Assembly: GCA_018658105.1 (NCBI GenBank)
Contig: JABHVW010000014.1
Span: forward strand, 1-64,000
Origin: Candidatus Peregrinibacteria bacterium
Lineage (GTDB): Bacteria > Patescibacteriota > Gracilibacteria > UBA1369 > 2-02-FULL-48-14
Length of the DNA stretch: 64,000 nucleotides
Direction: 5' to 3'
Within the stretch, counting starts at the first letter, position 1; each line of letters begins with the position of its first letter. This document shows, in pieces, positions 14,988-32,648 of this stretch. The position numbers and the translations under genes were made by a program. Below the pieces are notes generated by a model. The model searched no databases and was not told the origin of the DNA. It saw only the letters and a list, made by a program, of their open reading frames with translations.

Positions 14988-15434
14988 ATGAAATACAAAG
15001 CTTTCTCATTTTTGGAGTTTACAATAGCGATTGCGGTGCTTTTGATAATTATTACTTATACAGTCCCGAAAATGGCGAACTATATGTTTAGTAATCAATT
15101 GGAGGTGGCAGGGGAAGGGGTGATTCATGTGCTTAGAAAAGCTCAGGCGCAATCTGCAACTCAAGTGAATGATGAAATTTGGCAGGTTGATTTTGATGAA
15201 GTTGCTGGGACTTATACATTTGGCTCTTCAGATGAGGCTACATACGACATTGTTTATACTTTGCCAGGGACTGTGAGCTTTACTGATGTGACTTTAACGG
15301 GTGCTGGTGATGTTGTGATTTTTGATCAGTTAACGGGTGCATCTGCGACGGATGGCACTATTGAACTGACTGGAAGTGACGGCAGCACTTATTCGATTTC
15401 TATAAACACAAAAGGGCATGTTGATAAAAGTTGA
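14988..15434 (+). CDS. prepilin-like protein (GspH/PilE type N-terminus)
   Basis: MKYKAFSFLEFTIAIAVLLIIITYTVPKM class III signal. Confidence 0.8.
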   Translation: MKYKAFSFLEFTIAIAVLLIIITYTVPKMANYMFSNQLEVAGEGVIHVLRKAQAQSATQVNDEIWQVDFDEVAGTYTFGSSDEATYDIVYTLPGTVSFTDVTLTGAGDVVIFDQLTGASATDGTIELTGSDGSTYSISINTKGHVDKS

Positions 15435-15599
15435 GAGCTTCTGACTAGATAATTCTTCTATTACAAAATGAAAAAATTGGCTGCAAAAAATTTACAGTTC
15501 GTCATCGTATCTTTTCGTGATACGACTTTCTCACTGATTCATTTCTTTCGCTCATTTTTTTCATCTTTCACTACGAATTCTTATCTAGTCAGAAGCTCT
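15434..15599. repeat. fold-back element (19 bp perfect inverted arms, 128 nt loop)
   Basis: AGAGCTTCTGACTAGATAA (15434-15452) vs TTATCTAGTCAGAAGCTCT (15581-15599). Confidence 0.85.
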
Positions 15600-22566: not shown

Positions 22567-22677
22567 TAAGTCTTTTTCGTCAAGCTATTCCTATTTAGCT
22601 TCTTCACTAGCGCTCCGGGCCGCTAAGCCAAGTCTTACTACCTTTAGAATCTAAATAGGAATAGTGAAAAAGACTTA
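22567..22677. repeat. fold-back element with GC-rich core
   Basis: TAAGTCTTTTTC..CTATTCCTATTTAG vs CTAAATAGGAATAG.GAAAAAGACTTA; loop holds GCGCTCCGGGCCGCTAAGCCAAGTC. Confidence 0.88.
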
Positions 22678-22690
22678 ATTTAGTTCTAAA

Positions 22691-23710
22691 TTATGCCAAA
22701 TATGCGATAGCGATGGAAACTACTAAACCGATGCTGGCTAGGGCGACGTCTTTCATTACGAGGCCTAATGTGCGGGCGTAGGGTTGTTTGTGACCGGATA
22801 GGCGTGAAAGTGCTACTTCACGACCTGCGAGCAGACCTAGAAAGACCCAAGTGGTACTCATTGGTAGGTTATTAATATTTTTGAAGAAAAGTAGTATGGT
22901 TCCAAACACGAAATTGATTATAGTTGCGGAACGTGGGTCGATTACATCTGTTTTTTCTTGAATGATCTCTTGAATACGTCCGCCACGCATATAGAGTAGT
23001 AGCCCCATTCCGAGGAAAAGTGTTGTAATTATTGCTATGAATTGCGTAGTTTCTATGGTGCGTGGTAGGAAAACGGTTATGTTTGCTGTGTCTTGCATTA
23101 GCCATGTGCTCCAAAGATATCCGGTTGCGAACCATTGAAGAACTCGCCATACTTTTTTGTTGTAATTGTCTTTGAAGAGAATGTTGTTCTTTTTAAGTTC
23201 TGCGACTACTGCCCAAATGATGAGTGCTGATATAAAAGCCAGAAAATAACCCATGAAGGTTTTTTCAAGCATGCTTGTTATTGTTTTTGCGTCAGTGAAA
23301 ACTGCAAGTAAAAGGAAAGTGGTACTCACCGGCATTTTCAGATGAGTGAGTAGTAGTAGGATGAGTGGGGCGCACAATTGCATTAATGAAAAACTGTCTA
23401 CTTCTGGGATTTTTGCTAAGCGTTCGTAGGCAATATCACCTTGGAGCCAGCCATAAGTAAAAACAGCAACTAGGATTCCACCGATGAAAAGCCAAAGTAC
23501 CCACCATGGTGTATTTTTGTTTGATGCTATGAAAGGGCCAAGGCTTTGTATACTGTCGTTTGCAATTGCGCTGTAACCAGCAAGACCGAAACCTATCCAC
23601 ATTGCAATGTGTGGTTGGTTTTGGAAAATAATAATCGCTGTTAAGAATATTGTTATCATTCCAAAGAAGCGGGAATTTTTCTTTATATATGCTACAACTT
23701 TTGTGATCAT
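22691..23710 (-). CDS. PiT-family inorganic phosphate/anion permease
   Basis: ANDSIQSLGPFIAS and MPVSTTFLLL / LPMSTTWVFLGLLAGREV duplicated signatures. Confidence 0.82.
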   Translation of the reverse strand: MITKVVAYIKKNSRFFGMITIFLTAIIIFQNQPHIAMWIGFGLAGYSAIANDSIQSLGPFIASNKNTPWWVLWLFIGGILVAVFTYGWLQGDIAYERLAKIPEVDSFSLMQLCAPLILLLLTHLKMPVSTTFLLLAVFTDAKTITSMLEKTFMGYFLAFISALIIWAVVAELKKNNILFKDNYNKKVWRVLQWFATGYLWSTWLMQDTANITVFLPRTIETTQFIAIITTLFLGMGLLLYMRGGRIQEIIQEKTDVIDPRSATIINFVFGTILLFFKNINNLPMSTTWVFLGLLAGREVALSRLSGHKQPYARTLGLVMKDVALASIGLVVSIAIAYLA

Positions 23711-31323: not shown

Positions 31324-32577
31324 CTACTTTAATATTTTTCTGATTTTTAACATACCGGCACTTACCATTATGATTTCACCTGTTAATGCGGCTAGAAGTA
31401 TTAAGAAAAGTCGAACTTCTTGAGTTTCGGGAGTGAGTGATGTGATGAATAATATGCTTGCAGCTGCGAGTGCTAGAAACTCCCATTTTAAAAACCACAT
31501 GTCTTTTTCAAGGCCGAAAAGTGTAATTAAAACTAAGTCGTATAGGTAAGAAACTGCGGCTATTGTGAGTAAAAGTGGAAGCATGAACCACAATGTTGGG
31601 CTGATGAAGTCTGAGCTTGAAACCAAGCTTAGAAGGTAGGGGCCGAGTAGGGAGCCGCTGATGATTGCAAGTGCGCCGAGAGCAATTAAACCAAGTCTAG
31701 TTTTTTTGTAAATTTCTTTGGCATGTTTGAAGTGTTTTTCTTTTAGAGATTGTTTAAAAATTGGCAGAACTGAATACATTAGAAATGTTGAAAGAATCGC
31801 GATTGTTGCAACGGCGCTTAGGGCAAGATTGTATCGACCGTAGTCAGTTTCTGTGAGTGCTTTTGCGGCAAAAAAGCTCGGCATAAAGCGGTAATATGCA
31901 TTGTTGATTATATTTATAATTCCAAAGGGAATAGAGGTGATGAATAGTGATTTGATTAATATGCTGCTAAGTTTGAATTTAAATTTAATGCGATGTCTTA
32001 CGAAAAGCATGCTGATAATTAGGCTGATGATGGCTGCACTTAGTGGTGCCAAGAAGAAAAGTGGAGTGCTGCTTGTTTGTGAAACTAATAAGAAAATGAT
32101 TCCGAGTTCTATGATTCGTCCGAGGGTTATTGCAAAAACTGAGCGGCCCATAAGGTAATTTGCTTGCAGGGTTGCGGTTGCGATGCTGGTGAGATTGTCG
32201 AAAAGAAGTGAGCAGGCGAAGAAAAGTAAGCCGAGAGTGAAGGTGCTGTCGAGGGCGAATTGAGAGTAGGCGAGGCCTGCGACTAAGAAGAAAAATATTG
32301 TTATGAATCTTAAGAACAAGGCGTTTATGAAAAGTTTACCGTCATCAGGATTTGTAGACATTTTACGTACAGTGTTTCCGAAAATCCCTAAGTTTGCAGT
32401 TGTTGATAAAAATAGTGCGAATTCTGCAATTTTACCGTAAAGGCCGTATTCTTCTGGGCCGAGAGCATTTGTTACAAGTTTAATGCTGATTATGCCGATT
32501 GCAATCTGAAGTATTTTGCCAAAATACTGAATGAAAGTGGACCATAGAATTTTGTTTTGTAGGGCACGTGTAATCAT
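31324..32577 (-). CDS. polysaccharide flippase (Wzx/MATE-like)
   Basis: Multi-TM; IKLVTNALGPEEYGLYGKIAEFALFLSTTANLGI. Confidence 0.85.
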   Translation of the reverse strand: MITRALQNKILWSTFIQYFGKILQIAIGIISIKLVTNALGPEEYGLYGKIAEFALFLSTTANLGIFGNTVRKMSTNPDDGKLFINALFLRFITIFFFLVAGLAYSQFALDSTFTLGLLFFACSLLFDNLTSIATATLQANYLMGRSVFAITLGRIIELGIIFLLVSQTSSTPLFFLAPLSAAIISLIISMLFVRHRIKFKFKLSSILIKSLFITSIPFGIINIINNAYYRFMPSFFAAKALTETDYGRYNLALSAVATIAILSTFLMYSVLPIFKQSLKEKHFKHAKEIYKKTRLGLIALGALAIISGSLLGPYLLSLVSSSDFISPTLWFMLPLLLTIAAVSYLYDLVLITLFGLEKDMWFLKWEFLALAAASILFITSLTPETQEVRLFLILLAALTGEIIMVSAGMLKIRKILK

Positions 32578-32648
32578 ATTTTTTATTGTTTTAGAATGCG
32601 CTCCGGGCCGCTAGGCCGAGTCATACCTTCTAAAACAATAAAAAATAT
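32576..32648. repeat. fold-back element with 21 bp perfect arms and GC-rich core
   Basis: ATATTTTTTATTGTTTTAGAA / TTCTAAAACAATAAAAAATAT around TGCGCTCCGGGCCGCTAGGCCGAGTCATACC. Confidence 0.92.

What the first reader, a model, noticed from the sequence alone, without database searches (positions are those of the whole stretch)
22567..22677. Second fold-back sharing the same GC core but with different arms
Two perfect arm blocks (14 bp and 12 bp) with a 6-vs-1 nt internal bulge surround a 52-nt loop holding GCGCTCCGGGCCGCTAAGCCAAGTCTTAC. Two of the core differences from 32576-32648 are A/G transitions. It lies 14 nt past the PiT permease stop codon, so a terminator role is possible, but intrinsic terminators do not carry conserved 25-nt loops.
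Basis: partly seen in the sequence, partly recalled or inferred. Interest (0 to 1): 0.75.

Follow-up and report, generated by a model that had tools for sequence, protein, structure and literature searches.

The report
Palindromic repeat element, sometimes inside genes
The fold-back is one of about a dozen copies, in this small-genome bacterium, of a previously unnamed short palindromic DNA element that also occurs in other ultra-small (CPR) bacteria and in Bifidobacterium, where it is repeatedly gained after genes and, in the CPR bacteria, even in frame inside essential proteins.

Summary
It is not a local curiosity. The core recurs about a dozen times in this 1.12-Mb genome and in at least 112 places in a reference collection, in Saccharibacteria, other CPR bacteria and Bifidobacterium, up to about 38 copies per genome. 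It was not found in viral contigs, phages or plasmids. The core is conserved in sequence; the arms are conserved almost only in pairing. Copies are gained at sites empty in relatives, favour gene ends, form tail-to-tail pairs, and in CPR genomes sit in frame inside GatA, ValRS, LigA, Tgt, TsaD, MiaA and others. Best explanation: a new family of REP/RPE-type palindromic mobile element. RAYT transposase, reverse transcriptase, large serine recombinase and integron integrase were each missing from at least some carriers, so the mover is unknown. Arms seem to be rewritten by copying one stem onto the other, in CPR perhaps partly from target DNA; this is inferred. Intrinsic terminator is not supported as the defining role.

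The parts
22567..22677 (-). Palindromic element, copy 1; the folding strand is judged to be the minus strand (R)
   Evidence: strand
22567..22578 (.). Outer arm, left (12 bp), pairs with 22666-22677
22585..22598 (.). Inner arm, left (14 bp), pairs with 22651-22664; 6-nt bulge at 22579-22584
22610..22638 (-). Conserved apical core; on the minus strand GTAAGACTTGGCTTAGCGGCCCGGAGCGC
22618..22629 (-). Apical stem GGCC-loop-(A)GCC; one position varies as GGCC/GGCC or GGGC/GCCC in relatives; the C.A mismatch here is a G.T wobble on the minus strand
22651..22664 (.). Inner arm, right; 1-nt bulge at 22665
22666..22677 (.). Outer arm, right
32576..32648 (-). Copy 2 of the same family: arms 32576-32596 / 32628-32648 (21 bp perfect), core 32598-32626
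22691..23710 (-). Neighbouring gene, phosphate transporter (PHO4/PiT); its stop is 14 nt from the element

Best explanation
It is a copy of a dispersed, non-coding palindromic mobile element of the REP/RPE type. Inferred: the R strand acts as a folded single-stranded intermediate (ssDNA or an own RNA) recognised through the core, and new copies integrate where they do little harm (after stop codons, surface loops of proteins). Inferred, weaker: stems are kept perfect by selection for the fold and/or by template switching that copies one arm onto the other, so that only the body (core plus inner arm) keeps its sequence.
For: Copies: about a dozen distinct sites plus two tandem arrays in the own genome; at least 112 stretches in reference genomes; 1-38 per carrier genome. 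Patchy: 6 of 380 sampled genomes of the window's phylum, 51 of 151 in the family of B. callitrichos. Covariation: 52 CPR copies, 85.7% of cells paired, 320 two-sided changes against 106 in shuffles, falling sharply at other registers. Gain: most Bifidobacterium orthologues of one carrier site have far shorter spacers, some 14-30 bp; empty sites read directly at L053/L038 and L165/L051. In-frame insertions. Pairs: 8 of 10 neighbours inverted with the core strands facing each other, none the other way; same in whole-genome coordinates.
Against: No cognate enzyme: Y1 transposase, reverse transcriptase and large serine recombinase are each missing from some carriers, including Bifidobacterium genomes with several copies. 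Orthologous copies stay in place between species while arms change, which looks like maintained function as much as selfish spread. No identical young copies at two different loci were seen, so current movement is not shown. Most copies examined come from draft or metagenome assemblies.
Confidence: 0.7

Rival explanations
1. A functional 3'-end element: bidirectional transcription terminator or mRNA stabiliser with a protein-bound apical loop.
For: Tight spacing after stop codons of genes read along the core strand (most at 26-60 nt; 61 such left neighbours against 32). CPR copies often have A-run and T-run arms. Orthologous copies persist.
Against: The strand that folds better is antisense to those genes and the bias does not follow gene direction. 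Copies sit inside coding genes. Bifidobacterium copies have no T-run. No terminator pattern at this copy. Most orthologous sites have no element.
Confidence: 0.14
2. Folded single-strand recombination site of attC type, moved by a tyrosine recombinase with the bottom strand active.
For: Gene followed by site with the bottom strand folding; pairing conserved, sequence not; in Bifidobacterium a conserved CTMCGTT-like motif at the foot of a stem of about 29 bp. Generic tyrosine recombinases are found in 16 of 17 genomes tested.
Against: No genome reaches the integron-integrase cut-off. Copies are dispersed singles or pairs behind housekeeping genes, not cassette arrays. The conserved part is the apex, not the foot. 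Insertions inside proteins are not cassettes.
Confidence: 0.06
3. A family of small structured RNAs with own promoters, multiplied by duplication.
For: Covariation and the wobble bias fit an RNA of the R strand.
Against: No Rfam match. In-frame copies inside essential genes. Tail-to-tail pairs and patchy distribution fit mobile DNA better.
Confidence: 0.08

Closest known systems
Rickettsia palindromic elements (RPE), and Wolbachia coding palindromes
   Same: About 100-150 bp palindromes, several families, in intergenic DNA and in frame inside conserved proteins, no transposase known (PMC10969869, PMC2229807)
   Different: Other organisms; no sequence relation found here (not compared with RPE models); here a fixed apical core with stems rewritten by paired changes, whereas RPE copies were reported to lose repeat identity with time (PMC6649704)
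GTAG REP elements / BIMEs moved by RAYT
   Same: Short palindromes after genes and sometimes inside genes, inverted dimers; the second Bifidobacterium core begins GTAGG followed by a GGCC hairpin
   Different: Tag is not constant (GTAA, GTAT, CTAA, GTAG) and is not a free end but lies inside a long stem; RAYT absent from the window's genome and all six Bifidobacterium carriers tested
CGTC REP elements
   Same: Dispersed inverted dimers without a dedicated transposase (PMC3733652)
   Different: No CGTC tag at the foot of the stem; unit is much longer
Coding palindromes of Nematomorpha mitochondria
   Same: Near-perfect palindromes inside coding genes; template switching proposed as the maintenance process (PMC6649704)
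   Different: No conserved apical core or dispersed family there

Membership tests
RPE-type coding palindromic element | Palindrome of about 100-150 bp in many copies | tested here: met
RPE-type coding palindromic element | In-frame insertion within conserved protein genes | tested here: met
   (CPR copies; the window copies are intergenic)
RPE-type coding palindromic element | Sequence homology to a described RPE family | not tested
   Rickettsial elements were not fetched for comparison
GTAG REP moved by RAYT | Unpaired terminal GTAG tag | tested here: not met
   tag varies and sits at the base of a longer stem
GTAG REP moved by RAYT | RAYT (Y1_Tnp, PF01797) in the genome | tested here: not met
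   absent in the own genome and in six Bifidobacterium carriers
Integron attC | Integron integrase in carrier genomes | tested here: not met
   none over the cut-off
Integron attC | Fold of one strand conserved, sequence variable | tested here: met
   same for many other hairpins
Intrinsic terminator | GC stem followed by a T-run on the transcribed strand | tested here: not met
   for this copy; for Bifidobacterium copies
Classical MITE | Conserved terminal inverted repeats and target duplication matching an autonomous element | tested here: inconclusive
   stems are not conserved in sequence; no partner element found; no clear target duplication seen
Known Rfam RNA | Match to a curated family | tested here: not met

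The most novel reading that the evidence does not exclude
Only the body (core plus inner arms) is the inherited mobile unit. At each new site in CPR genomes the outer stem is made on the spot as an inverted copy of the flanking target DNA, by snap-back or template-switch synthesis, so the element builds its own palindrome from the host gene it enters. This would be a mode of insertion not described for REP, RPE or MITE elements.
Probability: 0.27. Interest if true: 0.8.

Novelty: new variant of a known kind. Interest (0 to 1): 0.6.

Why it matters
Palindromic elements inside protein genes were known from Rickettsia and some other bacteria as an oddity. Finding a family with a fixed core in CPR bacteria, in frame in core enzymes such as ValRS, LigA, GatA and TsaD, and the same core in Bifidobacterium, makes the origin of such insertions testable in a culturable genus. 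It also raises the question of how the element crossed between bacteria this distant. The maintained pairing with free sequence makes it a natural test of whether template switching or selection keeps palindromes perfect. It adds extra segments to CPR proteins that annotation would otherwise leave unexplained.

Tried and rejected
RAYT-mobilised REP (Y1_Tnp absent in many carriers). Reverse-transcribed element (RT absent in the own genome and most Bifidobacterium carriers). Large serine recombinase, found by gene-content comparison of the own genome, one carrier and most of a non-carrier, but absent in all six Bifidobacterium carriers tested. Integron attC (no integrase over the cut-off). Known RNA family. 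Phage or plasmid origin (viral contigs 0; phages 0 and plasmids only weak partial matches). A shared neighbouring gene (none). Published sequence match (none relevant). Arms as copies of target DNA in Bifidobacterium: at two empty sites neither arm is native and the arms keep a weak family consensus. First covariance model R1 was off by one register and was replaced by R2.

Full report
Observation. The fold-back at 22567-22677 is present exactly as described. The core GCGCTCCGGGCCGCTAAGCCAAGTCTTAC (22610-22638) matches 32598-32626 with three differences. Two matches with up to 3 mismatches against none in 100 shuffles, and 5 long-hairpin bins against 0-1 in each of 20 shuffles, exclude chance.

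Copies in the genome. Pattern and covariance searches find about a dozen distinct sites on both strands plus two tandem arrays (period 60 at C11:79743, period 62 at C1:219008). The copies read in full are intergenic, mostly next to gene ends, and their arms differ.

Copies elsewhere. There were none in viral contigs, none in phages and only weak partial matches in plasmids. With model R2, 20 carrier genomes hold 1 to 38 copies. Distribution is patchy: 6 of 380 sampled genomes of the window's phylum and 51 of 151 in the family of B. callitrichos. No Rfam family matches.

Anatomy. The apical core is close to invariant (in part because the scan pattern required it) and contains a 4-bp stem, GGCC/GGCC, that changes to GGGC/GCCC in 17 of 52 copies. 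Around it lies a long stem whose sequence is almost free but whose pairing is kept: 16 of 16 pairs show two-sided changes, 85.7% of cells are paired, and the score collapses when the register is slid. In Bifidobacterium the stem is about 29 bp and ends at a fairly constant motif (left CCG, right CTMCGTT-like). A second core type, GACCGTAGGCTTGGCCGAACGGCCTTGAGTGTGTC, occurs in several Bifidobacterium loci.

Which strand folds. A.C is G.T on the complement, so the complement (R) is the strand whose fold matters, and it folds better in 139 of 157 copies. The bias is the same whether neighbouring genes run with or against R, so the fold is not simply part of the neighbours' mRNA. The window copy fits: its one apical C.A mismatch is a G.T wobble on R. 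Relatedness among copies makes the p-value optimistic.

Insertion. At one Bifidobacterium locus most orthologues have much shorter spacers, some only 14-30 bp, while carriers have roughly 150-240 bp (computed from match coordinates). Empty sites were read directly at L053 against L038 and L165 against L051. Orthologous copies keep their place while arms change, sometimes with clear paired changes (L072/L135, L038/L053), sometimes beyond recognition (L100/L137). In one orthologous pair the arms agree but the core is inverted (L205/L212). Neighbouring copies are inverted with the core strands facing each other in 8 of 10 cases and never the other way; the coordinates give many more pairs of that kind.

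Inside genes. In CPR genomes, Saccharibacteria above all, many copies lie in frame within conserved proteins: Tgt, ValRS, GatA, LigA, CysS, TsaD, MiaA, PrmC, an aminotransferase and a glycosyltransferase, confirmed against homologues without the insert and against solved-structure sequences for GatA, ValRS and LigA. The core is read in several frames (KTWPSGPER, TLRAALAKS, ALRGASPSL, RSGPLGQVL). A second carrier genome read nearly in full (G065) also has in-frame copies, one in TsaD.

Origin of the arms (inferred). In Bifidobacterium the arms keep a weak common consensus and are not native at empty sites, so they belong to the element and diverge by paired change. In the two CPR groups the outer arms keep little or no common sequence, and in some genes the hairpin is longer than the net insertion (by my count LigA about 91 nt against 60-69, TsaD about 85 against 51), so native flank takes part; in TsaD of L083 the left arm encodes conserved residues. 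In ValRS there is little such overlap. Copying one arm onto the other by template switching explains this, but selection for the fold does too, and the data do not decide.

Mechanism and place among known systems. The sum of features (short palindrome, dispersed, gained, after genes and inside genes, inverted pairs, no coding capacity) is that of REP and RPE elements (PMC3733652, PMC10969869, PMC2229807). Defining features of RAYT-moved GTAG REPs are not met: the tag varies and is internal, and Y1 transposase is missing from the own genome and six Bifidobacterium carriers. Reverse transcriptase, large serine recombinase and integron integrase also fail as common movers. I therefore file it as a new family of the REP/RPE kind with an unknown mover, not as a member of a named family. 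RPE sequences themselves were not compared.

Limits. The gene-content comparison used an incomplete non-carrier genome (about 70%). ORF calls were simple. Most CPR copies are from metagenome assemblies.

Noticed in passing
L017:340-560 and L018:295-560 (own genome C11:79743-79960, C1:219008-219230): Two tandem arrays of core plus right arm (period 60 and 62 bp), the left arm present only once, each ending in a partial core.
   Followed up: partly
L067:6155-6189, L116:6267-6303, L053:4342-4380, L077:290-330: Second core subfamily GACCGTAGGCTTGGCCGAACGGCCTTGAGTGTGTC in Bifidobacterium, often paired with the first type in inverted orientation.
   Followed up: partly
L205 and L212, around position 1521: Orthologous elements with the same arms but the core inverted, suggesting flipping between the arms.
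   Followed up: no
L021:360-425 (own genome C11:84560-84625): A GC-rich stretch GGTGCTCCGGGCCCCGCCAAGGCGGGCAAGTTGCTTGGCC close to a copy, resembling a different or decayed core.
   Followed up: no
window 15434-15452 / 15581-15599: A separate perfect 19-bp inverted repeat 128 nt apart, without the GC core.
   Followed up: no
L186, L115 (PrmC); L099, L044 (Tgt, CysS): Other, unrelated-looking insertions occupy the same protein loops in relatives, as if these loops collect insertions repeatedly.
   Followed up: no
own genome G000 C4:100-900: Tyrosine recombinase gene that scores highest against the integron integrase model (below cut-off) and carries an internal TAA.
   Followed up: no
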